This document shows positions 5,757-17,685 of a stretch of DNA of 17,685 bases, one piece after another. The stretch comes from Tannerellaceae bacterium (lineage in GTDB: Bacteria > Bacteroidota > Bacteroidia > Bacteroidales > Tannerellaceae), in assembly GCA_031279915.1 (NCBI GenBank), contig JAITHO010000043.1, forward strand, positions 1 to 17,685, written 5' to 3'. The stretch's first letter is position 1. Each line of letters starts with the position of its first letter. Made by a program: the position numbers and the translations under genes. A model generated the notes under the pieces. It saw only the letters and a list, made by a program, of their open reading frames with translations. It ran no database searches and had not been told where the DNA came from.

Positions 5757-6082
5757 GTAGAGACGCGATGCATCGCGTCTTTACGCGGCATTAACGCAGC
5801 CTGTTTGTGTTTGTAGAGACGCCCAAATTGGGCGTCTTTACGCGGCGTTGACACAGCCTATGTTTGTGTTTGTGTTTGTAGAAAGGTAATTCCGCCTGCC
5901 CAAATAGGTCATTCCCGCCTTCGCGGGAATGACCTGTTTTTCGAGCGGGAATGACCTGTTGCCACATTTACTTACGCGGCATTAACGCAGCCTATGTTTG
6001 CGTTTGTGTTTATAGAGACGCGATTAATCGCGTCTTTACGCGGCATTAACGCAGTAGAGACGCCCAAATTGGGCGTCTTTAC
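5757..6082. repeat. cluster of four 28-29 bp palindromic repeats with common linkers
   Basis: Four near-perfect palindromes lie at 5757-5784, 5813-5841, 6012-6039 and 6054-6082. Each has arms of the type GTAGAGACGC...GCGTCTTTAC. The centres alternate between GAT(GC or TA)ATC-type (first and third) and CCAAATTGG (second and fourth). Linkers share GCGGCATTAACGCAGCCT followed by runs of GTTTGTGTTT, giving a 56 bp period between the first two units. All copies have the same polarity. They lie in the convergent gap between the nitroreductase terminator and the next minus-strand gene. They look like REP- or MITE-type elements. No transposase is present. Confidence 0.85.
5878..5975. repeat. hairpin element occupying the third position of the palindrome cluster
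   Basis: Where another palindrome is expected (GTAGA at 5878, TTAC plus linker at 5972), about 90 bp of other sequence is found. It contains a perfect 13-bp inverted repeat, AGGTCATTCCCGC (5906-5918) and GCGGGAATGACCT (5923-5935), with a 4-nt loop and followed by GTTTTTC. A third partial copy, GCGGGAATGACCT, lies at 5945-5957 in direct orientation. The GTCATTCCCGC type of sequence is a common intergenic repeat in many bacteria. The hairpin plus T run could also terminate rightward transcripts. Confidence 0.7.
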
Positions 6083-6096
6083 GATGATGGGGGGCG

Positions 6097-7026
6097 TTAT
6101 TCGCCGGCTGCGGGTGGGTTGAGATCGTCGGGGTTGATGGGCGGGATCGTTATGTTGGGTTGCTGCGGAGGGGTGTCGGGGGCTTCCGGCAGGGTATTGT
6201 CGGGGGCTTGCGGATCGGTGGGCGGGGTGGTTGGATCGGTTGGCGGGGTGGCCGGAGGGGTGGATGGCTCGTCGGTTGCGGGCTTGTGATGGTGGTCGCG
6301 ACGTGATAGTACGCGCTCTGTTTGATGGAGGAGTCCGCTGATGTAGTTTGCGGCGTTTTCGAGATTGGTCTTGATGGCGGCGTCTTTGGCGGTCATTTCG
6401 TTGTATCCGTGAATGATGTTGATTTGGTCGATGATGTCGATGAAGGCCGCGTCAACTTCTTTGCGTATGTCGACTGCTTTGCCCATTTTTTCGAGTGCTT
6501 CGAGCGCCAAGAGGCGCTGCTGATAGAGGTCATAAAGGTTGGTGTTGACGGTGGCGAGCCTCTGGAGCATTGCGCCGATGCTGGGCAGGAGGGCGATGAA
6601 GCCTGCTAAGGCGGGCTTGTTGATGGCGATGAGGAAGTTCTGGATGAATTTTGTTTCCTCAAACAGATTTTTCTTGCTGGCATGCTCGTATGGCTTCAGT
6701 ACGAACAGAATCTCGAAGGCTGCCTGTTTGATGGCGGCGTCGGGGCTGTTGTGATGGAACTTAAGCTCGCGCTTGATCTCGTTGAAGAGGCGGTCGCGTT
6801 CTTTGTCGGCGGCGGCGATGAGGTGCGATTCGTAGGATTCGGCGGAGATGCGGAACAGGAGGTTTTCTTGCTCTACCAGGGCTTCGTATTTGTTCCATAT
6901 TTCGAGCAATAGGGCTACGGCTATTATGAAAGCCTTGATATTGTCGACTATACTGGTGCCGAACTCGACATGCTCTCCGTTGCGGAGGCGGCTAAAAAGG
7001 TGGGTGAGATGTTTATTCAATAGCAT
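6097..7026 (-). CDS. helical protein with proline-rich C-terminal tail, possibly DUF6261
   Basis: Function is unknown. The 309-residue protein has no signal peptide. Residues 1-245 are predicted by eye to be mainly helical, with one hydrophobic stretch at about 32-42 (AFIIAVALLLE) and another near 140-153, neither convincingly transmembrane. The LFSRLRNGEHVEF segment (10-22) resembles the N-terminus of Bacteroidota DUF6261 proteins as I remember them; this needs a profile search. A basic patch RRDHHHKP (242-249) leads into a low-complexity Pro/Thr/Asp tail (249-309) that contains a 7-residue repeat TPPTDP(T/Q), encoded by an imperfect 21-bp direct repeat near 6212-6253. The gene stands alone, with its own promoter and a palindrome 15 bp beyond its stop. 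The tandem array upstream of it shares its core with the array beside the PUL regulator. Confidence 0.75.
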   Translation of the reverse strand: MLLNKHLTHLFSRLRNGEHVEFGTSIVDNIKAFIIAVALLLEIWNKYEALVEQENLLFRISAESYESHLIAAADKERDRLFNEIKRELKFHHNSPDAAIKQAAFEILFVLKPYEHASKKNLFEETKFIQNFLIAINKPALAGFIALLPSIGAMLQRLATVNTNLYDLYQQRLLALEALEKMGKAVDIRKEVDAAFIDIIDQINIIHGYNEMTAKDAAIKTNLENAANYISGLLHQTERVLSRRDHHHKPATDEPSTPPATPPTDPTTPPTDPQAPDNTLPEAPDTPPQQPNITIPPINPDDLNPPAAGE

Positions 7027-7106: not shown

Positions 7107-7165
7107 TATCTTGCGCTCCAAAAAAACAAAAGTCTTTTTTTTGCCCCTCAACATTTTCACCGGCT

Positions 7166-7578
7166 CGACAGTTGTCGAAAGCTCCGTTTTGCCGGCGGGA
7201 TGGTTTCGACAAATGTCGGTGGCGCAAAAAAAGTCGTAATGAAGCTTTCGACAATTGATAATTCAACGGATTTGGGGATTTTGTTAAGCCCGACAAACCG
7301 CAGAGGCTCCAAAATTTCTCGCCGGAGGTTCCGACAGCCTTCGGAGCCTCAAAATCGTGAAATTTGTATAGCTCGACAAATGTCGAAAGCTCCGTACCGG
7401 AAAATCGGTCTCACCGACAAATGTCGAAAGCTCCGCGCTGGCGAATCTGCCCCACCAACAAATGTCGAAAGCTACCCGTCGGAAAATCGGCCCTACCAAC
7501 AAATGCCGAAAGCTACCTGCCGGAAAATCGGCCCAACCAACAAATGCCGAAAGCTACCTGCCGGAAAATCGGCCCAAC
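7166..7578. repeat. tandem array 1: ten units of 41-42 bp
   Basis: Units begin with CGACA or CAACA at 7166, 7207, 7249, 7291, 7332, 7374, 7415, 7456, 7497 and 7538, so the spacing is 41 or 42 bp throughout. The last five are well conserved: C(G/A)ACAAATG(T/C)CGAAAGCT, then a more variable stretch, then GGAAAATCGG in four of the five. Units nine and ten are identical. Units two to five keep the spacing but are strongly diverged. CGACAAATGTCG is itself a short dyad. A 41 bp period shifts frame at every unit, so this is not coding. The array ends about 27 bp from the GH28 stop codon. Confidence 0.9.
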
Positions 7579-7605
7579 CGATAATTAACCGACGCTTTGC
7601 ATCGG

Positions 7606-8937
7606 CTACAAATTGACCTGAGCGCGAGCGGGAACAATTGCAATGTTGGCCTGCCTGAGGTTATGGATGTAGCCGGCGGGCAGCGGGTGATTTTTATCTG
7701 CCCTGATCTTTAGATTTTCGAAAACGAAGTCGGAGAGCTCGTACTGATCGGATTTTTCGATGTTCAGAAATGTGCTGCAATCCAGGTTGATGTTGCGCAT
7801 TACGATATGGCTGGCGCGGGAGGGTAGGGGGGCGGGATGGCCTTTGAGGTCGAAAAATTGCGTCCAGGGATGCACGTAGAGGAAGTTGGCTGCGTTGCCG
7901 GCGATGTCTTCAAGGAGGATGTACTCGTAGCGCTGCGGGGTGTCGGGCCGCATCTTGAGCCAAAGGAGGCGCTGGGCGCGGTCGACGGTGGAGCGGCGGA
8001 AGATGATGTTGCGGTTGTGTATGGATTCGCTGCCGCAGGTGAGGGCGCTGTGGCAAAATCCGTAGGTGCAGTCTTCGATGATGATGTTGCGGTTGCCGCC
8101 GTTGTTGGGGTCGCGGTCGGCGGTGGGGCCTTTGCCTCCTTTGAGGGCTACGGCGTCGTCGTTGACCGACATGTAGCAGCCTGTGATATGAACGTTGGCG
8201 CATGCGTCGATGTCGACGGCGTCGGCGCTGGGAGCTTTCACGGGGCTGCTGGGCGAGAAGATATACAGGTTTTGGAGCCTGACGTTCTCGCATTTGTAGA
8301 GGTGGGTGGTCCAAAAGGGCGAGTTGATGAGGCTGAGGCCGGCTATCCGCACGTTGTTGCTGTTGGATATGTATATCAGCCTTGGGCGCATCTCGTCCAT
8401 GTTGGTGCACTGCGGATTGAACTCGCGCCGCAGCCAGAAGGCTTTCCAGTAGCGCAGCCCGTTGCCGTTTATCGTTCCTGGTCCGGATAGGCTGAAGCCG
8501 TCGACGCCATCGGCATTGACAAGGGCGGCGAAGTAGCGCAGCGTTTGGCCCTCCATGCGGGTCATGCGGAGGGGGAAATGGCTGATGTCGTCGCTCCCTT
8601 TCAATACTGCTCCCTCCTCGAGGTGCAAATGGGTTCCGGGCTTAAAAAATAGCGAGCCGCTCAGGAATGTTCCTTTGGGGATGATAATCACCCCGCCCCC
8701 GTCATCGTGCGCTTTGTTGATCACGGCCTGAATCTGCTCGGTTTGCACCGCTGAGCTGTCGGTCGTAACCCCGTAATCGCTAATCCGGTAATGCCTGCCC
8801 AATAAGTTGATATCAATAGCCTGCTTGTCATTAAACCAATCGGGAATGGGCGTTCCGTCGGGAAATAAATCCTGGGCCGATGCATTAAGTACGGCTATAA
8901 AGGCGCATATCCAAAGGCCATATATAGTTCTCATCAT
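7606..8937 (-). CDS. glycoside hydrolase family 28 enzyme (polygalacturonase / rhamnogalacturonase fold)
   Basis: This is a secreted beta-helix hydrolase that probably cleaves galacturonic-acid linkages in pectin-derived chains in the periplasm or at the cell surface. The 443 residues start with a signal peptide (1-21, cleavage after ASA, before QDLF). The parallel beta-helix gives the repeated NNVRIAG, NVRLQNL and NVHITGC turns. The catalytic acids of GH28 are present: Asp239 in SADAVDID (the NTD motif position), Asp260-Asp261 in SVNDDAVALK, and His296 in CHSAL (the GHG position). The position of the RIK motif reads WLKM (326-329), so the lysine is kept but the arginine is not. It is the last gene of the PUL and is separated from susD by an intrinsic terminator. 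Endo- versus exo-action and substrate cannot be decided from sequence. Confidence 0.92.
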   Translation of the reverse strand: MMRTIYGLWICAFIAVLNASAQDLFPDGTPIPDWFNDKQAIDINLLGRHYRISDYGVTTDSSAVQTEQIQAVINKAHDDGGGVIIIPKGTFLSGSLFFKPGTHLHLEEGAVLKGSDDISHFPLRMTRMEGQTLRYFAALVNADGVDGFSLSGPGTINGNGLRYWKAFWLRREFNPQCTNMDEMRPRLIYISNSNNVRIAGLSLINSPFWTTHLYKCENVRLQNLYIFSPSSPVKAPSADAVDIDACANVHITGCYMSVNDDAVALKGGKGPTADRDPNNGGNRNIIIEDCTYGFCHSALTCGSESIHNRNIIFRRSTVDRAQRLLWLKMRPDTPQRYEYILLEDIAGNAANFLYVHPWTQFFDLKGHPAPLPSRASHIVMRNINLDCSTFLNIEKSDQYELSDFVFENLKIRADKNHPLPAGYIHNLRQANIAIVPARAQVNL

Positions 8938-8958
8938 TGTTTTTAACAGATAAAATAC

Positions 8959-8995
8959 AAAAAAACGAAGGTGCAGTTGTCAGTCCTGCACCTTC
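8959..8995 (-). terminator. intrinsic terminator between susD and GH28
   Basis: Read on the minus strand, GAAGGTGCAG pairs with CTGCACCTTC (arms at 8986-8995 and 8967-8976, 10 bp perfect, 9-nt loop) and is followed after one G by seven T residues (8965-8959). It begins 17 bp after the susD stop. GH28 starts 21 bp beyond the T tract, so its expression must come from read-through or from an undetected promoter. Confidence 0.88.
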
Positions 8996-9012
8996 TCCTT
9001 CTTATGATTAGA

Positions 9013-11091
9013 TCAATAACCAGAATTTTGTAATTCCGTTTTCTGCGCATCGGTCAGAGCCGAGCCGTCATCGTTGATCAAGCCGTCAATAAATGATTGC
9101 GGAATGGGGCGGTATAGATGATGATCCTTGAGCGTGTTCGACGCCTTCGTTTCTCTGTTGAAGAGCATAGCCCGACGAACAAGCAATTTCGTGCGGGCCA
9201 GATCCTCCCAGCGATGGAACTCGCCGTTCAGCTCGCGGGTGCGTTCGTTCATAACGAAGTTCAGCATCCGATCATAGTCGCCCGAGCAATTCAGTTGCCG
9301 CAGTATGTACTCATCCTCCTTAGGCAGCTTGCTGACGCTGCTAACCGTAAGGCTCGTTGGCTGCGAGAAATCGCTCAGGCCGGTAGTTATCGTATAAGTG
9401 TTCTTCTTGCTGTAAGCCTTATACATGGTAGCGTTAGAGCCTTGGGTGAACATGGAGCTCGTTTCGAAAGCCTCCTGACCATCCTGATGGCGCGATCGAT
9501 CTTCGTTAGGCTTATACTGCGCCCGCTCGCGGAGTCGGTTAATCGGCTCGAGAGCTTCCTGGTACTTGCCCTGACGCACGAGAGCTTCGGCTTTGATGAG
9601 ATACGTCTCGCCTACGCGAGCCAGAACGCCGTCGCGATAGCTGTTGCCGCTCTCCGAGGTGCGGGTGCCGTCTTCAAACTTCGACAGGCCAACGTAGCCG
9701 TTCTTCGGTACAGCCACAACTGCATCTTTGGAGTTGTTCTGCATCCGCCACTGCCCTCCGGCATTACCGTTGTAGTGCACGATAGCATTCGGAACAACCT
9801 TGCCCTCAAACTCAAAGTCGGATTCGCCCACAAGAGCGAAATGCTTGCCGTTCCATGAAGGATCCCAGCGGTAGCTGAGCGACGATCCATCCTCCGACAC
9901 GGTTCCGTTAGGAATGAAAACGATAACAGGATCGCCTATTTCAATGGCATAGTTCTCGCCCGTGTTATTGTTCTTAATGTTGGCCGATTTGTTGGCATTG
10001 TAGATGGTTCGGGTAGACTTCCAGAAGCGGGAGTCGCTGGCCTTGTCGTAGGCGAGGATGTTGTATTCCGTCGGACGGCATCGCTGATAGTTATGGCCCA
10101 CCCATGGGCCGCGCTGAATCCATGTGCCGAAAGCTCCGTTATGGAATTGGCAGTTCCAGTAGAAGAAGTTGCGATTGCCGTATCGTCCTTGCGTGGATCC
10201 GTTATCGAACTCGGCGGCCATGAGAATCTCCGGCAAGGTCTCGGCTTCGCAGTTCACTCCCGTCCATTCGGCAAAGAGATTGGCGTAGTCGGCGGCTAAG
10301 GGTCGGTGAGAGATGACATCGTCGCAGAGCGTGACAATGCGAGCCAGATCTGCCGCTTTATACTGATCGTTCCATGATTCGTTGCGCTCGCTTACTCTGA
10401 GCAGAAGCGCCTTGGCGAGGAAGTGGGCTGCAGTATATTTTGTCCATCCAAGCTTGCCGCGACGGCTAACGTCACTTTGATCCGGCAGCAGCTCGTAAGC
10501 GGCTTGCAGATCGTCGATGATTTGAGCCAGGCAGTCTTCTTCGCTGGCTCGGCTGAAGGTTCGGACCACTCCCTCCGAGGGCTCCGTGCGCAAAACCACT
10601 CCGCCATACTGCGAAACCAAGCGGTAGTAATTGTATCCGCGAAGAAAATGTCCTTCGCCCAGCACCAGATTGCGGATGTCGGCCTTAGTAACCGCATCGG
10701 CGTTGGCTATAACGGTGTTGGCCGAGGATATTCCGTAGTAAAGCTGATCCCAGAGGGCTTGCGGAGTGGGAACGTTGGCGTTCATGCCGGTTGTGATGGC
10801 TCCGAGGCGTGCGTCGTATATCATCCAGGGCTCGGAGGTGGCGTCGGTTCCCATCTCAAATTCATCGGTGCCATAAGACGTAATACCGTAGGCCCATTCG
10901 AATGCGAAGAGCCAGCGCCCGTTGGAATAAAGCGAACCTGCGAGCTCAACTATGCCTTGCTCGGTTGTCAGATAATCGCTCAGGTATCCGCTCTTGTATT
11001 CCTCGTCGAGGAAGTTTTCTGAGCAGGAGTAGAACGATACGGAGGCTGTGATGCAAATTATGCATCCCAATATATATCTATACAGTTTCAT
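9013..11091 (-). CDS. SusD/RagB family outer-membrane glycan-binding lipoprotein
   Basis: This surface lipoprotein forms the lid of the SusCD transporter and captures oligosaccharide. The signal peptide ends in a lipobox-like SFYSC with Cys23 as the lipidation site, followed by SENFLDEE, the usual SusD N-terminus. TPR-like helices follow, with the LRGYNYYRLVSQYGGVVL block (about 149-166) typical of SusD. The C-terminal signatures are NERTREL (615-621), RWEDLART (627-634) and YRPIPQSF (660-667). At 692 residues it is longer than the starch-type SusD (about 550), mostly through an expanded central binding region (about 330-480). It lies 30 bp downstream of its susC partner. The neighbouring GH28 and GH105 genes suggest a pectic ligand. 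Confidence 0.96.
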   Translation of the reverse strand: MKLYRYILGCIICITASVSFYSCSENFLDEEYKSGYLSDYLTTEQGIVELAGSLYSNGRWLFAFEWAYGITSYGTDEFEMGTDATSEPWMIYDARLGAITTGMNANVPTPQALWDQLYYGISSANTVIANADAVTKADIRNLVLGEGHFLRGYNYYRLVSQYGGVVLRTEPSEGVVRTFSRASEEDCLAQIIDDLQAAYELLPDQSDVSRRGKLGWTKYTAAHFLAKALLLRVSERNESWNDQYKAADLARIVTLCDDVISHRPLAADYANLFAEWTGVNCEAETLPEILMAAEFDNGSTQGRYGNRNFFYWNCQFHNGAFGTWIQRGPWVGHNYQRCRPTEYNILAYDKASDSRFWKSTRTIYNANKSANIKNNNTGENYAIEIGDPVIVFIPNGTVSEDGSSLSYRWDPSWNGKHFALVGESDFEFEGKVVPNAIVHYNGNAGGQWRMQNNSKDAVVAVPKNGYVGLSKFEDGTRTSESGNSYRDGVLARVGETYLIKAEALVRQGKYQEALEPINRLRERAQYKPNEDRSRHQDGQEAFETSSMFTQGSNATMYKAYSKKNTYTITTGLSDFSQPTSLTVSSVSKLPKEDEYILRQLNCSGDYDRMLNFVMNERTRELNGEFHRWEDLARTKLLVRRAMLFNRETKASNTLKDHHLYRPIPQSFIDGLINDDGSALTDAQKTELQNSGY

Positions 11092-11121
11092 GATGACTAT
11101 TTATATGTATGATTAAACGGG

Positions 11122-14100
11122 TTAGAATGTCAGATCCAGACCTAAGGTCCATCCTTGATTGTATGTGGCTCCACCCAAATCTAAGTCGATGAAGTCTACG
11201 CTCGAGTAGATGGTGAAGGGGTTGTTTGCTTGCACATATATCTTCATGTTCGACAGGCCGGCCTTGCGGATAATGTTGCGCGGAACGATGTAGCCTAAGG
11301 AGATGTTGCGCATCTTAAGGAAATTGGCCTCGCGGAAGCCCAGGAGGTTGGCATAAGCATCGCCGCCTGATTCGTTGTAGATGGGCATCTGATATTCGGC
11401 TTCGATATTGCTCGGCGTCCAGTAATCGATTACTCTTTGATTGTAACGCCCGATCTGGCTCTCGCCGCCGGCTTCAACCCAATATTTGAATCGTCCGTAC
11501 ATCTGCAGGGAGAGCTCAAATTCTTTATAGGTAAAGCTGTTTAGCCAGCCGAACGTCCAGCGCGGGGTTCGATTTCCTAAGATGACGCGGTCATTGTCGT
11601 CAATTTTATATATCTCCTTGCCCTCGCTGTCTTGATCGTTCTTAACATCAAGTGGTTTTACCATGCCGGGCTTGAATTTATGACCGTTTGCATTATATTT
11701 TGCCATCAAATCTTGGTCGGCGGGAGTGTCTTGCCATAATCGTTCTTTCTGGAAGTTGTAATAGACGGAGATTGAATTGCCGATGAACCATGAATTGGAT
11801 ATGTCGTCGGCCTTTCCTGATGCTAGCTCTTCTATTTTATCCTTGGTGTAAGCTGCTGATATGGTGGAATGCCATGCGAAGGCTCGCGTTTGAATGGGAA
11901 TAAGGTTCAAACTGATATCTACGCCGGTGTTTGAAGTCCGACCAATGTTGGCTATGGTATTTGGATAGCCCAGTAGAGTGGGAATCTTCATGCTCAGGAG
12001 TAAATCCTTGGTGCTTGAAGCGTACCAATCTATTGATCCGCTTAGGCGCTCTCGGAGGATACTGAAATCAAGTCCGATATTCCATTGCGTGGTCTTCTCC
12101 CAACCGAGTTGTTTGTTAGGCATGCCTATTTGATCTCTTACATAGAAGGGTTCGTTGGTTGTGTAGATTATAATGTTGCCGTCGCTATTGATGCCATTGA
12201 ATGGTTGTCGTCCGGATTGGATGCTGCCGAGAGTGCCATAAGGATCGACGGCGGCGTTGCCGGTTGTGCCGATGCCAAATCGTAGTTTCAAATTGTCGAG
12301 CCAGGGTTTATCCAAGAGGAATGATTCTTGATTTACTCTCCAGCCGAGTGCAAGGGAGGGAAAGAAGTCCCATTTATGCCCGGCCGACAGCTGCGAGGCG
12401 CCGTCCCAACGTCCGGATGCCGTAAGCAGGTATCGATCGTTGAAGGAATAATTCACGCGCAGCATGTACGACTCTAGCTGACGCTCGTTTATACCTGTGC
12501 CCCACTTGGCCGACACCAGATCGCCCTTAGGATCGAGTGTGCCGAAGGCGTTCCACGTCCAAACCTCGTTGGGTACGCCTTGACCGTTCATGTCGGAGGT
12601 TTCGTACATCCAACTTGATGATGTGTGCAGCATGGTGGCGCCTATGGTGTGCTTGTTGAAAGTACGATTGTAGTCTAATTGCTCGTCGAGCGTCCACGAC
12701 AAATCATTGCGCTGCTGCAATCGAGCGTAATTCTGAGCGCCATTACCTCGAGTTACGGATTCGGAGCTGATGAAGATGCCCTCTCGCCAATAACGGAAGT
12801 CGGGGCCGAAGTTCACGCGAAGCTTTAAACCTTCAAGCGGCTTGATGATCTCGCCAAGATTCAGGATTCCATAGAAACTTCCGAGCGCGCGGAATGTTTT
12901 ACGCTGCTGTTGTGATCGATTCCATTCGCCTACAACGTTAGAGACGTTGTCCTCACCTCCGGGATGCTTGATGAAGGCTCCATCGGAGTCGTATGGACTA
13001 GAGAATGCGAAGTTTCTTTGCGCCCAACCGTAAATGTATGTTGGAATTCCCGTCGTGGTGGCCGAGCCGGTTTCGGATGTACCATATTCCTGCATTCCGT
13101 AGGAGGTATTGATGGAAGATCCAAGTGTAAACCACTTGACCGGACTGATGTTTGTATTGATTGTAGCTGTGTATCGCGTATACGATTGCCCCATTAGAGT
13201 GCCTTTATTATTAAGATAGCCTAATGAAGCGTAGGTGTTAGACTTGTCGCTACCTCCGCTCGCGCTAATTGTATGCTCGGTAACGACGCCTGTACGTGTG
13301 ACGAACTCAGTCCAGTCCGTCGAAGCCACGCGCGAACCGTCCCACTGTCCGTTGACCCATCCGTTCATTATATTATTATATGTAGTTGGGTCGCCGCTCA
13401 TGATGGCGAACACTTTCGCATCATCTTCCTGCGTGGGATTATCTCCCGGCGACGTAATCAAGCCTGCGTTGAACATGGCCCAGCGTCGCCAGGTGATATA
13501 ATCGCTAGCGTTCATCATCTCGGAGCGCGTTTTCTGCGTATCCGAACTGATAGTTCCCGAATAGCTCAGCCGATAGGCCCCCTCCTTACCTTTCTTTGTG
13601 CTCACGAGGATGACGCCGTTAGCGCCGCGAGATCCATATATGGCCGTTGCCGAGGCATCCTTCAGAACATCGACCGATTCTATGTCGCGCGGATTGATGG
13701 TTTCGATGGCCGAAGATGACATCAGGGGTACGCCGTCGACAACATAAAGAGGATCATTAGAGGCCGATATCGACCGGTTGCCGCGAATCAAAACCTTACC
13801 TAATTCGCCTGGGCGCTCGTTCGAAGTAACGTCAACGCCGGCTGCTTTGCCTTGCAGAGCCTGCATGGCATTCGTAACCGGACGCGCTTCCATCTCCTTA
13901 GCCCCTACATGAGTCAAAGCGCCCGTTACATCGCTCTTCTTCTGAACTCCGTAGCCCACAACAACAACTTCTTCCAGAAGCCGGGCATCTTCCTCAAGCA
14001 TAACATTAATAACTTTTCGCCCACCAACCCTTACGGATTGAGAAACGAAGCCTATGTAGGAAAACTGCAGCTCTGATTCAAGCGAGGGAATAGTTAATTC

Positions 14101-14301
14101 GTATCCGCCGTTCACGTCAGTAGCCGTTCCAATAGCGCTTCCAACTACCTGTACGCTTACGCCGGGCAAAGGATCGCCGAGCGCGTCACGAACAGTTCCT
14201 GTGATAGCAATTCTTTGTGCCATCACGATTGCGCAGAAAGAGAATAGCAGAAAAATAACTGTCATTCCTCTTCGTGCAAACATTCTTTTCTTTACATTCA
14301 T
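11122..14301 (-). CDS. SusC/RagA family TonB-dependent outer-membrane transporter
   Basis: This protein imports the oligosaccharide held by SusD across the outer membrane, energised by TonB. I place the start at the ATG 14299-14301 (MNVKKRMFARRG), giving 1059 residues. The frame can be extended to a TTG at 14326-14328, but that gives a poor signal peptide. The signal sequence covers about 1-28 (cleavage after IVMA). A carboxypeptidase-regulatory-like domain follows at about 30-103 (ITGTVRDALGDPLPGVSV), then the TonB box and SusC signature EEVVVVGYGVQKKSDVTGA (110-128), the plug domain with LYVVDGVP and SATAIYGSRGANGVI, and a 22-strand barrel ending in an aromatic residue (LDLTF). It forms a pair with the downstream susD and follows GH105 by 50 bp. 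A minor alternative start is the ATG at 14283. Confidence 0.96.
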   Translation of the reverse strand: MNVKKRMFARRGMTVIFLLFSFCAIVMAQRIAITGTVRDALGDPLPGVSVQVVGSAIGTATDVNGGYELTIPSLESELQFSYIGFVSQSVRVGGRKVINVMLEEDARLLEEVVVVGYGVQKKSDVTGALTHVGAKEMEARPVTNAMQALQGKAAGVDVTSNERPGELGKVLIRGNRSISASNDPLYVVDGVPLMSSSAIETINPRDIESVDVLKDASATAIYGSRGANGVILVSTKKGKEGAYRLSYSGTISSDTQKTRSEMMNASDYITWRRWAMFNAGLITSPGDNPTQEDDAKVFAIMSGDPTTYNNIMNGWVNGQWDGSRVASTDWTEFVTRTGVVTEHTISASGGSDKSNTYASLGYLNNKGTLMGQSYTRYTATINTNISPVKWFTLGSSINTSYGMQEYGTSETGSATTTGIPTYIYGWAQRNFAFSSPYDSDGAFIKHPGGEDNVSNVVGEWNRSQQQRKTFRALGSFYGILNLGEIIKPLEGLKLRVNFGPDFRYWREGIFISSESVTRGNGAQNYARLQQRNDLSWTLDEQLDYNRTFNKHTIGATMLHTSSSWMYETSDMNGQGVPNEVWTWNAFGTLDPKGDLVSAKWGTGINERQLESYMLRVNYSFNDRYLLTASGRWDGASQLSAGHKWDFFPSLALGWRVNQESFLLDKPWLDNLKLRFGIGTTGNAAVDPYGTLGSIQSGRQPFNGINSDGNIIIYTTNEPFYVRDQIGMPNKQLGWEKTTQWNIGLDFSILRERLSGSIDWYASSTKDLLLSMKIPTLLGYPNTIANIGRTSNTGVDISLNLIPIQTRAFAWHSTISAAYTKDKIEELASGKADDISNSWFIGNSISVYYNFQKERLWQDTPADQDLMAKYNANGHKFKPGMVKPLDVKNDQDSEGKEIYKIDDNDRVILGNRTPRWTFGWLNSFTYKEFELSLQMYGRFKYWVEAGGESQIGRYNQRVIDYWTPSNIEAEYQMPIYNESGGDAYANLLGFREANFLKMRNISLGYIVPRNIIRKAGLSNMKIYVQANNPFTIYSSVDFIDLDLGGATYNQGWTLGLDLTF

Positions 14302-14351
14302 AATAATTTGATTAAAGTGTGTCAACAACTAGAGATACTTAATATTTACGC

Positions 14352-15485
14352 TTATTGTAATCTATAAATTTCACTTGCGCCAAGAAGAAAACAACCTACG
14401 CCATAGTCCTCGAAATTCGGAATCTTATCGTATCCAAGCGGCTGCCCGTCTTTAGGTTCCTTGCCCGTACCTTGAACCCAGCCAAGGAAGCCGTCGGGAT
14501 GCACGGCATGACTTACTAAGCCTTCCCACGCCTTCAAAACAAGCGGTAAGTAGGTTTCTCGATCTAAAATCCCCTGCCGAATGCCCCAGGCCATACCATA
14601 AACAAAAAGCGACGTACCTGTCGTTTCCTTGCCTCCATAATGATTCGCATCGTGCAAGCTCACGTTCCAGAAACCATCCTCACGTTGGCAATCCTTCAAG
14701 GCTGCCGACATCGATTTGAAGTCTGAAACGTATTGCCCGCGATGCGCCTCATCCGCGGGAATACATTCAATCACCCGCGCCAAGGCCGCATAAACCCAGC
14801 CATTACCTCTCGACCAATAACAGTTCCTTCCGTTAGGCTCTTTATAAGGTGGAACAAAGCTAGCGTCGCGCCACCAAAGCCCTTCTGCACTGTTATACAG
14901 TCCGTGCAGCCCATGATGATTCCGGGTGAACATATACATGGCATGCATCTTCTCAAAATAACGCCGGTCGCCAGTTAATTCGCCCAGCTTAGCCAGCGCA
15001 GGCATCCCCATCTGAATTGCATCAATCCACGACCAATCGTCCAACTGCGGAGTATGTATCAGCATGTCTAAACAAGCCTTGATGTTACGAATCTTAACAG
15101 GATCCGGCGATATATTATACAAGTCGATATACGTTTGACCACAACATTGGTCATCCGCATTCCTCGTCGTATTCCCATTACGCAATCCCCACTTATGAAA
15201 CTCCGCCCAGTTAACCATATACGAGTAAAAATCCTCTTGAGGATAGATGCGGTAAAGCGACATAAGGCCCTCGTAGTAAACTCCGCGCGTCCAGATATTG
15301 CTCGGACGTATGATATCCGTATGCGAAGGCTTAGCGTAGTCCGCATACTTCTCCATAAAATACCTATTCACCTTGATCATAACCTTCAGCGCATCCTGCC
15401 TGTTTGGCAACTGAGCCCGCAGCCCAAAACAAGAGCACGTCATAATCAAGGCAACCATAATTGAAATTCTATTTAGCTTCATCAC
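14352..15485 (-). CDS. glycoside hydrolase family 105 (unsaturated rhamnogalacturonyl/galacturonyl hydrolase)
   Basis: GH105 enzymes remove the 4,5-unsaturated galacturonic acid left at the non-reducing end of pectin fragments by polysaccharide lyases, using a hydration mechanism. The 377-residue protein has a signal peptide (1-24, cleavage after LRA), so it probably acts in the periplasm. The alpha6/alpha6 barrel shows the expected motifs: NADDQCCGQ (109-117), whose Asp lies at a conserved substrate-binding position, and DDWSWIDAIQMGMPALAKLG (149-168), where Asp155 corresponds to the catalytic Asp143 of Bacillus YteR. YWSRGNGWVYAALAR and GFLGWVQGTGKEP are also family-typical. It is the first gene of the PUL operon, with its promoter immediately upstream. 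GH88 is a related alternative, but the length and motifs favour GH105. The need for an unsaturated substrate implies that a lyase is encoded elsewhere. Confidence 0.92.
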   Translation of the reverse strand: MMKLNRISIMVALIMTCSCFGLRAQLPNRQDALKVMIKVNRYFMEKYADYAKPSHTDIIRPSNIWTRGVYYEGLMSLYRIYPQEDFYSYMVNWAEFHKWGLRNGNTTRNADDQCCGQTYIDLYNISPDPVKIRNIKACLDMLIHTPQLDDWSWIDAIQMGMPALAKLGELTGDRRYFEKMHAMYMFTRNHHGLHGLYNSAEGLWWRDASFVPPYKEPNGRNCYWSRGNGWVYAALARVIECIPADEAHRGQYVSDFKSMSAALKDCQREDGFWNVSLHDANHYGGKETTGTSLFVYGMAWGIRQGILDRETYLPLVLKAWEGLVSHAVHPDGFLGWVQGTGKEPKDGQPLGYDKIPNFEDYGVGCFLLGASEIYRLQ

Positions 15486-15508
15486 ATTATAATAATATTA
15501 GATTGGCG

Positions 15509-15539
15509 CAAATCTAATCTCAAGCCCACCCTCACACAA
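15509..15539 (-). promoter_or_regulatory. promoter of the PUL operon (GH105-susC-susD)
   Basis: On the minus strand TTG (15539-15537) and TAGATTTG (15516-15509) are separated by 20 bp, matching the Bacteroidota -33/-7 consensus. Initiation near 15502 would give a leader of about 17 nt. No comparable promoter is seen in the 50 bp before susC, so GH105, susC and susD are probably one transcript. Confidence 0.7.
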
Positions 15540-15615
15540 TGGACAATAATACATATCAATGGAAAAAATGACTCCCCAAGCACATCCGAAAACCGCATCA
15601 ATGTAATATTGTCCA
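15540..15615. promoter_or_regulatory. inverted repeat abutting the PUL promoter, candidate operator
   Basis: TGGACAATAATACAT (15540-15554) and ATGTAATATTGTCCA (15601-15615) are inverted copies matching at 14 of 15 positions, separated by 46 bp. The left arm starts on the base next to the -33 element of the GH105 promoter, the usual place for an activator site. The natural candidate to bind it is the divergently encoded hybrid two-component regulator, whose family carries an AraC-type DNA-binding domain. Binding is inference. The stretch 15616-15717 shows nothing else I can name. Confidence 0.6.
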
Positions 15616-15725
15616 CAAAACATGGAAATTCATACAAACAACATCCTCAAACTACCTCTCCAGAAGCTCCTGCAACAGAAATTAAAGTTGTTCTCAGTTC
15701 ATGCAGAGCCAATTCAAGTAAAAAG

Positions 15726-16202
15726 CGTCCGCTTTTTGGTTCCCCAGAGAGTTGAGGAAGTGAAAATCGTCCGCTTTTTGCTTCTCCGAAAAGTATAGGA
15801 AGTAAAAGTCGTCCGCTTTTTGCTTGTCCAGAAAGTTTAGGAAGTGAAAATCGTCCGCTTTTTGCTTGTCAGGAGAGTTTAGGAAGTGAAAGTCGTCCGC
15901 TTTTTGCTTGTTCAGAAAGTTGATGAAGTGAAAGTCGTCCGCTTTTTACTTGTCTAAAGAGTTTAGGAGATGAAAATCGTCCGCTTTTTACTTGTCTAAA
16001 GAGTTTAGGAGATGAAAATCGTCCGCTTTTTGTATCTCCAGATAGTTTGTGAAGCAAAAATCGTCCGCTTTTTAGTTGTTGAAAAAGTTGGGGAGATAAA
16101 AATCGAACACTTTTTGGTTCTCGGAAAAGTTTAAAAGCAAAAAGCGGACGCTTTTCAGGTCTCCGGAAAGTTATGGAGCGAAAATCGTTCGCTTTTTGCC
16201 TC
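15726..16202. repeat. tandem array 2: twelve units of 42 bp
   Basis: Units starting with CGTCCGCTTTTT or a close variant begin at 15726, 15768, 15810, 15852, 15894, 15936, 15978, 16020, 16062, 16104, 16145 and 16186, so the period is 42 bp for nine steps and 41 for the last two. Each full unit has the block CGTCCGCTTTTT, then a less conserved stretch, then an AGAAAGTTTAGGAAGTGAAA-like block. Units six and seven are identical. The final three units are the most degenerate, and the last is truncated. The array fills most of the divergent region between the GH105 promoter and the regulator gene. Confidence 0.92.
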
Positions 16203-16229
16203 CACATAGCCCGCTAAAACAAATCAAAC

Positions 16230-16237
16230 TATATTTG
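16230..16237 (+). promoter_or_regulatory. candidate -7 element for the hybrid regulator gene
   Basis: TATATTTG matches the Bacteroidota -7 consensus TAnnTTTG and lies 26 bp before the ATG at 16264. The expected -33 position (about 16207-16210) has no TTG, and the nearest TTTG (16195-16198, inside the last unit of array 2) is too far away. It is therefore probably a weak or activator-dependent promoter. Confidence 0.45.
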
Positions 16238-16263
16238 TAGGCAACATCAGTAAGAGTATAAGA

Positions 16264-17685
16264 ATGAGTATCATTAAATCCTCCTCACTACATCGCATAT
16301 ATGCATTGCTAGGGCTGCTATTTGTCTTGAATCCGACAATAGCAGTCGAAATACTGCGTATGGAATGGATAAACGACCGTGACGGACTCTCGCAAAATAC
16401 AGTTCGCTGTATCATGCAAGACAATAAAGGATTTATGTGGTTCGGAACAATTAACGGGCTAAATCGATATAACGGCAAAGAATTTATCGTGATGCTTCCA
16501 CAAACCGGCAACTTCGCATCACTCCCCGACAACAGAATTAGAAGCCTGCAAGAAGATAAACACGGATACATCTGGATTCGTACAACCAACAACGTATTCT
16601 GCTGCTATGATCCCCGCCTCGAACGCTTCGTGGATTACGATCCCACAAACCAACAAAAGAGCTTCACGCACATCGCGCAGTTCTCCAACGGCGACGTTTG
16701 GCTCTGGGGAGCCAGCGACGGATGCTGCCGAATAAGCAACGACGGCAAAAAACTCCGCGCCCAACGCTTCGGAGAAACAGAATTGGGTAGCCCGTCCGTG
16801 CATTTTGTATACGAAGACGCTCTCCAGCAAACCTGGATAGGCTCCCGAAGCGGATTATTCAGAATAGACAACAACCAAGCCCTCAAGATCTCCTCCGAAT
16901 TCTTCTCCAGCATCCACGAAACCCCCGACGGCCTCTATTTAATCAGCGATCAACACCTAACTTATTTCAATAACAAACAACAAACATTCGGACAACCAAT
17001 CGCATATCCCGGAGGCCAAACAATCATGCTAAACATGGCAACTTTACTGGATAACGGACTGATTTTAATAGCAACAAAAGAAGAATTAATCGCCTTCGAT
17101 TCCCAACAAAAGATATTTATCCCCGCCGCGACATTATTCCAGAACGAAATAGTTCGCAATGCAACCTTTTATACCGATAATAAAGGCAATAAATGGGTTT
17201 ATAATATCTCAGGATCAGTCTGGCGAAACTTCCCCGATAATCACTTCGAGAAAATCAACCTTATCCCAGCCGATATCCTGACAGCAATCGACGCAGAACG
17301 CTATGAAATATACCACGATTCCCATAATATAATATGGATAACAACCTACGGAAACGGACTATTCGCTCTCGATCAAAACAACGGACAAACATATCATTAT
17401 ACAACAGATAATAGCGATCTGCCAACCGACTATTTATTGTGCGTAACAGAAGATCGGCTCGGAGAAATATGGGTCGGAACCGAATTTTCAGGTATAAGCA
17501 AAATTTCGCTGAATAACTATCCGGTAAAGATATTATATCCGGCATCCGACGAGCGTAGCCCACGCAAAAATGCAGTTCGTTTGATCTACGAAGACAGGCA
17601 GGGACGCTTCTGGATCGGTACGCGAACCGGCTATCTGCACATTTACGACGCATCATTCATCAAACTCAAATCCCACAAAATCGAC
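16264..17685 (+). CDS. hybrid two-component system regulator (HTCS), N-terminal sensor part; 3' truncated by window
   Basis: The frame is open from the ATG at 16264 to the window edge (474 codons, no stop). A signal peptide or anchor covers about 1-27 (LLGLLFVLNPTIA). The rest is a series of two-component-regulator propeller blades: GLSQNTVRCIMQDNKGFMWF, then QEDKHGYIWIRT, FSNGDVWLWG, YEDALQQTWIGSRSGLFRI, DSHNIIWITTYGNGLFAL, TEDRLGEIWVGTEFSGISKI and YEDRQGRFWIGTRTGYLHIY. This is the periplasmic ligand-sensing half of Bacteroidota HTCS proteins, which continue with a YYY domain, a membrane helix, histidine kinase, receiver and AraC-type DNA-binding domain. Those parts lie beyond the window and are inferred. 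Divergent placement next to the GH105-susCD operon suggests that it senses the pectic oligosaccharide and activates the PUL. Confidence 0.93.
   Translation, partial: MSIIKSSSLHRIYALLGLLFVLNPTIAVEILRMEWINDRDGLSQNTVRCIMQDNKGFMWFGTINGLNRYNGKEFIVMLPQTGNFASLPDNRIRSLQEDKHGYIWIRTTNNVFCCYDPRLERFVDYDPTNQQKSFTHIAQFSNGDVWLWGASDGCCRISNDGKKLRAQRFGETELGSPSVHFVYEDALQQTWIGSRSGLFRIDNNQALKISSEFFSSIHETPDGLYLISDQHLTYFNNKQQTFGQPIAYPGGQTIMLNMATLLDNGLILIATKEELIAFDSQQKIFIPAATLFQNEIVRNATFYTDNKGNKWVYNISGSVWRNFPDNHFEKINLIPADILTAIDAERYEIYHDSHNIIWITTYGNGLFALDQNNGQTYHYTTDNSDLPTDYLLCVTEDRLGEIWVGTEFSGISKISLNNYPVKILYPASDERSPRKNAVRLIYEDRQGRFWIGTRTGYLHIYDASFIKLKSHKID

What the first reader, a model, noticed from the sequence alone, without database searches (positions are those of the whole stretch)
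7166..16202. Two distant tandem arrays share one skeleton: GAAAG-N10-GAAAATCG with a 41-42 bp period
Arrays 1 (7166-7578) and 2 (15726-16202) look unrelated when their most conserved blocks are compared (CGACAAATGTCG versus CGTCCGCTTTTT). Aligned on the same strand they coincide. Array 1 unit six reads GAAAG, ten bases, GAAAATCG, 18 bases, GAAAG. Array 2 unit three reads GAAAG, ten bases, GAAAATCG, 19 bases, and again. The shared core is constant across loci, while the rest is homogenised within each array and different between them. The period is close to four helical turns, so all cores would face the same side of the DNA. This suggests a dispersed family of phased binding arrays, of nucleoid, structural or RNA type, that spreads as a core and evolves by unit duplication. 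I know of no named family with this layout.
Basis: partly seen in the sequence, partly recalled or inferred. Interest (0 to 1): 0.82.

Follow-up and report, generated by a model that had tools for sequence, protein, structure and literature searches.

The report
Tandem DNA arrays sharing only spacing
A gut bacterium related to Parabacteroides has many short DNA repeat arrays between its genes that differ in sequence but mostly repeat every 41-42 bases and tend to contain mirror-symmetric sites, which suggests that spacing and symmetry rather than letters are what the cell keeps.

Summary
Both arrays are real: array 1 has sites every 41-42 bp over 7166-7579, array 2 runs 15716-16199 at 42 bp. 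The claimed skeleton GAAAG-N10-GAAAATCG does not relate them: their units match at 19 positions, shuffles average 19.1, and 64% do as well.

What arrays share is wider. In 197,683 bp of own contigs picked by number, 23 of 24 arrays with period >=25 lie at 40-42 bp. Over 3.10 Mb of Bacteroidales DNA, 199 intergenic arrays split 29 at 10-20 bp, 66 at 21-23, 2 at 24-39, 100 at 40-43 and 2 above. Ninety-six long-class arrays from two species form about 47 sequence clusters. Units carry DNA dyads (z 9.3), palindromes covary, and spacing holds while sequence decays: 7 of 87 spacings shifted in the most diverged arrays against 44% in a neutral simulation.

I read them as DNA platforms with phased two-fold sites, selected for register; the partner is unknown. 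Nearest known: the 41-nt PgRS and 23-nt BrickBuilt repeats of Porphyromonas; the PgRS unit has dyads half a period apart.

The parts
7142..7373 (+). Leader of array 1: decayed 41-42-bp units, register kept (half-sites CGACA at 7166, 7207, 7249, 7291, 7332)
   Evidence: Aligned with copies on contigs C222, C115, C5, C93; sharp left edge near TCAACATTT; register positions
7374..7579 (+). Array 1, five 41-bp units, dyad CGACAAATGTCG followed by GAAAGCTCC, then an array-specific half
   Evidence: TRF 7376-7579, period 41; half-unit conserved between loci, other half not
15716..16199 (+). Array 2, about 11.5 units of 42 bp; includes a stretch in inverted orientation at 16135-16157
   Evidence: TRF rows; self-match in reverse orientation, 96% over 23 bp
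7606..8937 (-). Neighbour: glycoside hydrolase family 28; its 3' end abuts array 1
   Evidence: PF00295, E 7e-22
14352..15485 (-). Neighbour: glycoside hydrolase family 88, 5' side faces array 2
   Evidence: PF07470, E 1e-91
16264..17685 (+). Neighbour: two-component regulator propeller protein (open at window end), 5' side faces array 2
   Evidence: PF07494, E 3e-30
6097..7026 (-). Neighbour: DUF6261 protein, starts 116 bp left of the array-1 leader
   Evidence: PF19775, E 2e-23

Best explanation
The arrays are DNA-level platforms: rows of two-fold-symmetric sites laid down every ~21-23 or ~41-42 bp, so that successive dyads fall on about the same face of the helix. Most likely a homodimeric, DNA-shaping protein of nucleoid-associated type sits on each dyad and recognises symmetry and shape rather than fixed letters, so sequence drifts while spacing and self-complementarity are kept by selection. 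Arrays grow by unit duplication; some families are dispersed as a leader plus array, a few may move inside short elements with inverted ends. Shown here: period lock, dyads (statistically), covariation in one superfamily, spacing constraint, intergenic position. Inferred: the bound protein, its helical phasing, and any role in compaction, insulation or gene control.
For: Period lock with unrelated sequences. 483 spacings of the long class: 39 x5, 40 x31, 41 x283, 42 x162, 43 x2. Spacing off-mode 6/58, 22/190, 27/148, 7/87 with rising divergence, against 0.15, 0.24, 0.35, 0.44 in a neutral simulation put through the same pipeline, calibrated by 4785 substitutions to 461 indels in non-array intergenic DNA. 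Dyad score z 9.3 (z 5.9 with a 6-bp core) and pairing beyond the core 0.37 vs 0.25; perfect six-pair dyads centred between bases 13 vs 0.66 in shuffles, with the loop-2 pair complementary in 77% of them. Four paired states of one palindrome, 101 of 124 units fully paired. Pairing at exactly half a period from the first dyad, 1.70 vs 1.26 +- 0.13, and dyads 20.5 bp apart in the 41-bp Porphyromonas unit. Dyad-anchored base composition repeats in own versus G017 clusters, r 0.85 and 0.77, 1 of 300 shuffles each.
Against: No protein partner found; HU-type genes (PF00216) occur in 18 of 18 genus genomes and their number does not visibly follow array richness. Array content varies sharply within the genus: G010 none in 50,558 bp, G007 five short arrays of 21-22 bp in 100,000 bp; 11 order-level genomes sampled at up to 20 kb each show neither class. 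So the arrays are not indispensable. Mean spacings are 41.26 and 21.6: the short class is not exactly two turns of 10.5 bp nor half of the long class. The short class of own and G017 alone has a weak dyad signal (z 2.1, 19 arrays). Second dyads are not stronger overall than in partly shuffled units (3.64 vs 3.57 +- 0.08), only better placed. Two 22-bp arrays of P. gulae show no significant dyad (p 0.26, 0.32). Eleven arrays from other genomes did not repeat the composition profile (r 0.14 and 0.37), and own/G017 agreement could be residual homology.
Confidence: 0.42

Rival explanations
1. Mutational ruler: an enzyme or replication process makes tandem duplications of fixed length and copies one palindrome arm onto the other (quasi-palindrome correction); no function, arrays are selfish or neutral by-products.
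For: No gene-orientation preference: 38 tandem, 8 convergent, 16 divergent of 62 placed arrays, against 113/18/45 gaps of 150 bp or more. Patchy within the genus. Arm-copying would give covariation without selection. Two arrays have inward-facing pairs of a transposon-like end.
Against: Spacing does not loosen as units diverge; the decayed leader of array 1 keeps the 41-42-bp register. Two period classes with almost nothing between need two rulers.
Confidence: 0.3
2. Minisatellite-bearing MITEs of the PgRS/BrickBuilt kind: the arrays are simply the insides of non-autonomous IS5-type elements.
For: Porphyromonas has 41- and 23-nt repeats inside MITEs; inward pairs of GAGAGCTTTGCA, one letter from the end GAGACCTTTGCA of BrickBuilt_4 and _5, flank the arrays at L067:1649 and L052:2513; array 1 has a dispersed leader.
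Against: Of 16 matches to this end in 750,340 bp only 5 face an array within 500 bp. Inverted arms around the array in only 3 of 92 arrays with both flanks, one of them (L238) just a dispersed hairpin repeat; none is a window array. No shared right end is seen in the array-1 family. It does not explain the period lock.
Confidence: 0.12
3. RNA elements: transcribed rows of hairpins acting as terminators, stabilisers or sponges.
For: Units are palindromic, so transcripts would fold.
Against: Complementarity extends to the loop-2 pair, which an RNA hairpin cannot use: 61% of relaxed and 77% of perfect between-base axes in the long class, 67% and 90% in the short class (small numbers: 33, 13, 72 and 21 axes). 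G-T plus A-C make 50 of 146 non-pairs in the two relaxed tests, about the third expected from equal base use, so no wobble tolerance. No Rfam match in the window. No orientation preference to genes.
Confidence: 0.09
4. REP/BIME-like arrays spread by a RAYT (Y1) transposase.
For: Palindromic, intergenic, arrayed. G004, with one long-class array seen, has a Y1_Tnp.
Against: No Y1_Tnp match in array-bearing G000 (61% complete), G017 (83%), G011 (92%) or G005 (84%); 6 of 18 genus genomes have one.
Confidence: 0.03

Closest known systems
PgRS / MITE464 of Porphyromonas gingivalis (and P. gulae)
   Same: 41-bp tandem units; the P. gulae unit has dyads TCAGCTGA and CCTGCA-TCG-TGCAGG centred 20.5 bp apart, half a period
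   Different: One sequence family bounded by IS5-type ends; here about 47 clusters, mostly without such ends, at about one long-class array per 8.6 kb
BrickBuilt (23-nt minisatellite MITE of P. gingivalis)
   Same: Intergenic tandem units of the short class, with a leader; the end of BrickBuilt_4 and _5 differs by one letter from those at L067 and L052
   Different: Has leader and tail, one sequence family, 23 nt; the window arrays show no such ends and are 41-42 bp
REP/BIME elements
   Same: Intergenic palindromes in clusters (recalled)
   Different: No RAYT found in several array-rich genomes; unit length fixed across unrelated sequences
CRISPR arrays
   Same: Leader followed by regular repeats
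   Different: No unique spacers: in the array-1 family the variable half recurs from unit to unit within an array

Membership tests
PgRS/BrickBuilt-type MITE | Tandem repeats of 41 or 22-23 nt, intergenic | tested here: met
PgRS/BrickBuilt-type MITE | IS5-type terminal inverted repeats around the array | tested here: not met
   GAGAGCTTTGCA (one mismatch allowed) does not face either window array within 500 bp, and no inverted arms were found there; inward pairs at 2 arrays (L067, L052) in 750,340 bp. Other end sequences are not excluded
PgRS/BrickBuilt-type MITE | Sequence homology to the Porphyromonas repeats | tested here: inconclusive
   Units printed show no obvious likeness; no formal alignment was run
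REP/BIME with RAYT | Y1_Tnp (RAYT) gene in the genome | tested here: not met
   None in G000, G017, G011, G005; present in G004. G000 is only 61% complete
REP/BIME with RAYT | GTAG or CGTC tag beside the palindrome | not tested
   Recalled feature (a paper title names it); no dedicated test
CRISPR | Unique spacers between repeats, cas genes | tested here: not met
   Units contiguous and alike within an array; cas genes were not searched
Protein-coding repeat | Open frame with a known domain, period a multiple of 3 | tested here: not met
   41-bp period; frames across both arrays give 0 Pfam matches; 93 of 96 arrays overlap called genes by less than half
Structured RNA family | Rfam match | tested here: not met
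   0 matches at gathering score in the window

The most novel reading that the evidence does not exclude
Bacteroidales carry a sequence-free DNA code: intergenic arrays whose only conserved properties are an even number of helical turns per unit and two-fold symmetry, read by a shared dimeric protein that senses dyad and shape. Because a dyad repeated with period P recurs at P/2, in-phase dyads require P/2 to be a whole number of turns, which would allow about 21 and 42 bp and forbid about 31 and 52 bp, as observed.
Probability: 0.22. Interest if true: 0.9.

Novelty: new variant of a known kind. Interest (0 to 1): 0.7.

Why it matters
Bacterial repeats are normally classed by sequence. Here many unrelated sequences share one unit length and a tendency to symmetry, and unit length resists indels as sequence decays. 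That points to an unrecognised constraint on intergenic DNA in a major gut lineage, links the 41- and 22-23-nt repeats of Porphyromonas to a wider class, and gives a directly testable prediction (spacing and symmetry matter, letters do not). In practice the arrays probably also break short-read assemblies: 31 of 96 lack a called gene on one side, many lying at contig ends.

Tried and rejected
Shared skeleton between arrays 1 and 2: no better than shuffles over the whole unit; the loose core is over-represented in the 96 arrays (10 vs 0.2) but not once clusters are counted once and the discovery families dropped. A single strong motif: k-mer counts in 47 clusters show only A-tract, CTTGCG and CTCC/GGAGG themes; a 16-bp EM motif (cTcC.GAAAAA.ATcC) scores 89.5 against 64-71 in 8 dinucleotide shuffles (60 seeds against 40, so slightly favoured) and is very degenerate; widths 10 and 24 give 57.8 vs 39-54 and 118.8 vs 90-99. 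RAYT transposase: absent in several array-bearing genomes, present in one. HU gene number: no visible relation to arrays. Phage and plasmid homes: array 1 against phages and array 2 against plasmids gave no match (the reverse pairs were not run). Common element ends: 3 of 92 arrays have inverted arms. Clean empty site at L067 in G017: both flanks meet across 126 bp without an array, but the alignment is too poor to show an insertion scar. Assembly artefact: rejected, since units differ from each other (TRF matches 69-98%), G017 and other assemblies show the class, and a 41-bp array occurs in Porphyromonas.

Literature: searches listed no paper that I recognised as describing a sequence-independent shared period; only openly licensed PMC text was searched, and most hits were seen as listing only. 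PMC4596501: abstract, found passages and part 1 of section 7 read. PMC5771137: found passages only.
Full report
SETTING. The window is contig C80 of a draft genome of 2,085,321 bp in 229 contigs, 60.75% complete. Its RuvB protein is about 86% identical to Parabacteroides, so it belongs to or near that family of Bacteroidales; the genome itself is unnamed. Array 1 lies between a DUF6261 gene and the 3' end of a GH28 gene. Array 2 lies between a GH88 gene, followed on the same strand by TonB-receptor (SusC-like, name inferred), SusD and GH28 genes, and a divergent two-component-regulator propeller gene.

OBSERVATION. Both arrays exist. Array 1 extends left of the part that TRF sees: half-sites stand at 7166, 7207, 7249, 7291, 7332, 7374, 7415, 7456, 7497, 7538 and 7579, 41-42 bp apart even where the rest of the unit is unrecognisable; one match at 7149 is out of register. 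The proposed skeleton does not relate the two arrays over the unit: 19 matching positions, shuffles 19.1 on average, 63.8% of 500 shuffles at least as good. The local score of 17 lies between the 95th (16) and 99th (19) percentile of shuffled pairs. The exact pattern occurs 6 times in the held genome, in array 1 (4), array 2 (1) and a relative of array 1 (1). A loose form (N9-11, at most 2 mismatches) is found in 10 of 96 arrays against 0.2 in shuffles, but in 44 clusters without the discovery families at most 1 at any of these spacings, no better than neighbouring spacings.

A GENOME-WIDE CLASS. I took 20 own contigs by number, not by content (197,683 bp). They hold 30 arrays of period 15 or more and at least 2.4 copies: 22 bp x4, 23 x2, 40 x2, 41 x13, 42 x8, 45 x1. 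Two of the 42-bp arrays (L071:8131, L078:5918) and the 45-bp one overlap called genes. The nearest species, G017, sampled over 298,994 bp largely chosen by similarity, gives 36 at 40-42 and 9 at 21-23 among 53. Pooled over 3,096,918 bp (own, G017, other genus members, family and order members, 80 named RuvB loci), the 199 intergenic arrays of period 10 or more are 29 at 10-20, 66 at 21-23, 2 at 24-39 (24 and 26), 100 at 40-43 and 2 above (96 and 126). The own and G017 shares include contigs chosen for array similarity, so the 100 is inflated: 57 are own, 36 G017, 6 other genus members, 1 a named MAG (L141). Arrays in called genes are left out of these counts; they include 6 more of 42 bp. Short arrays of 21-23 bp occur in many named Bacteroidales, but 11 order-level genomes sampled at up to 20 kb each (216,592 bp) show neither class. 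The long class is common in own and G017, and seen in G011, G004, G005 and a family member G022, some of them in called frames.

UNRELATED SEQUENCES. Ninety-six arrays of period 40-43 from own and G017 form 32 clusters at score 26, 47 at 30 and 61 at 38; the highest score of 4000 shuffled pairs was 26. So the period is shared far beyond recognisable homology. Some families are dispersed: array 1 has a conserved leader of about 230 bp with copies on C222, C115, C5 and C93 and three in G017; the half-unit CGACAAATGTCGAAAGCTCCG is largely shared, the other half is array-specific.

POSITION. By my own simple gene caller, 93 of the 96 overlap genes by less than half; 31 of these could not be placed between two called genes. 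The 62 placed arrays are 38 tandem, 8 convergent and 16 divergent, like gaps of 150 bp or more (113/18/45), so there is no preference for terminators or promoters. They lie nearer 3' ends (median 134 bp) than 5' ends (281 bp).

SPACING IS KEPT. The 483 unit spacings of the long class are 39-43 bp, 445 of them 41 or 42. Binned by divergence from consensus, spacings off the array's own mode are 6/58, 22/190, 27/148 and 7/87, never by more than 2 bp. Non-array intergenic DNA between own and G017 has 4785 substitutions to 461 indels (10.4:1; 180 alignments of 50 bp or more at up to 88% identity, dispersed repeats not removed). Arrays evolved in silico at that ratio, each site independently, and put through the same pipeline show 0.15, 0.24, 0.35 and 0.44 off-mode, with shifts up to 8 bp. 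Detection bias is therefore unlikely to be the cause. Units copied together share history, which the simulation lacks; this affects substitutions and indels alike.

DYADS. Each array tends to have a two-fold axis: inner-8 score 6.21 against 5.27 +- 0.10 (z 9.3; z 5.9 with an inner 6) and pairing further out 0.37 against 0.25 (47 clusters). The 57 arrays of 21-23 bp from genus, family and named relatives give z 7.2 and 0.45 against 0.26; the 19 short arrays of own and G017 only z 2.1. Perfect six-pair stems centred between bases: 13 against 0.66 in shuffles; centred on a base: 4 against 0.48. In the 13 the loop-2 pair is complementary in 77% (61% in the 33 relaxed axes), which no RNA hairpin can use. 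Non-pairs are not enriched in G-T/A-C (50 of 146 in the two relaxed tests). In one superfamily, C[GA]A[CT]A-NN-T[GA]T[CT]G, the four fully paired states occur 17, 30, 27 and 27 times, 101 of 124 such 12-mers in or near arrays; away from arrays 5 of 46 are fully paired. Units within an array are not independent. Half a period from the first dyad there is extra pairing: 1.70 against 1.26 +- 0.13 of 5, and 11.3 against 6.5 +- 1.9 second axes fall within 19-21 bp (3 of 200 null sets reach this); the second axes are however no stronger overall than in the null (3.64 vs 3.57 +- 0.08).

A FAINT COMMON CODE. Aligned on the dyad, 47 cluster representatives are G+C-rich at 9-10 bp (z -5.6 and -3.7 for A+T) and pyrimidine-rich at 10-13 bp on the outward strand. 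Nineteen own and 13 separate G017 clusters give the same profile (r 0.85 and 0.77; 1 of 300 shuffles each), but 11 arrays from other genomes do not (r 0.14 and 0.37). Shared descent and shared recognition cannot be told apart here.

TURNOVER. Of the own arrays' flanks, 18 (from 15 arrays) had an ortholog in the G017 stretches and 9 (from 7 arrays) met a G017 array nearby. At L079/L209 both flanks agree and both units are 42 bp and recognisably related. Both flanks of array 2 meet G017 arrays with an unrelated 41-bp unit, because in G017 the whole GH88-to-GH28 block is inverted relative to the regulator, between two arrays of one family in opposite orientation. This suggests recombination between arrays, from one example.

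KNOWN RELATIVES. P. gingivalis has 41-nt repeats in PgRS/MITE464 and 23-nt repeats in BrickBuilt, not homologous to each other, both with IS5-type ends, and 22-nt repeats were also reported; BrickBuilt segments carry promoters active both ways (PMC4596501: abstract, passages, section 7 part 1). From the P. gulae genome behind L143 I fetched such an element: the unit AGAATCAGCTGACAATCGCGTCCTGCATCGTGCAGGAAGCA repeats 7.4 times at 41 bp. Read directly, the palindromes TCAGCTGA and CCTGCATCGTGCAGG are centred 20.5 bp apart, half a period; one search scores 4 of 5 pairs at that axis. Its main dyad has p about 0.015-0.02 in shuffles (one element, seen through two loci); two 22-bp P. gulae arrays have p 0.26 and 0.32. 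Ends one letter from those of BrickBuilt_4 and _5 flank 2 of the own arrays, L067:1649 and L052:2513.

MECHANISM. Period lock and spacing constraint are shown; DNA-level dyads are shown statistically; the bound protein and helical phasing are inferred. The even-turn idea (P/2 must be a whole number of turns for all dyads to face one way) was formed after seeing the data and would account for the nearly empty 24-39 and empty 44-62 ranges. Against it, 22-23 bp is longer than two turns of 10.5 bp. The strongest rival is a mutational ruler; kept spacing in decayed units speaks against it but does not exclude it.

VERDICT. The finding led to something larger than claimed, but its stated evidence, a shared core, is not better than chance between the two arrays. 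I file this as a new variant of a known kind.

Noticed in passing
L067 1531-1981: Array flanked by 118-bp imperfect inverted arms beginning AGCTTGAGAGCTTTGCAC, so the element is close to one large palindrome; no array was found at the orthologous spot in G017.
   Followed up: partly
window 5882-5968: Dispersed hairpin repeat (CATTCCCGCCTTCGCGGGAATG and neighbours), 85-98% identical copies on many own and G017 contigs; beside it GTAGAGACGC...GCGTCTTTAC repeats.
   Followed up: no
window 6097-6483: The 3' part of the DUF6261 gene with a proline-rich tail has 65-88% identical matches on contigs C159, C65, C119, C90 and C62.
   Followed up: no
window 7606-16264 versus G017 C40 19044-27990: The GH28-SusD-SusC-GH88 block is inverted relative to its regulator in G017, with related arrays in opposite orientation at both ends.
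   Followed up: partly
window 16135-16157: One core of array 2 stands in inverted orientation; array 2 also aligns to contig C204 in both orientations, 71% and 67%.
   Followed up: no
L233 733-1091: Intergenic array with a 126-bp period, three times 42; its printed consensus looks like a large palindrome.
   Followed up: no
L089-L168: Named Bacteroidales carry intergenic 21-23-bp arrays, 23 in 1.41 Mb, mostly of few copies; pooled with genus and family members they are dyad-rich.
   Followed up: partly
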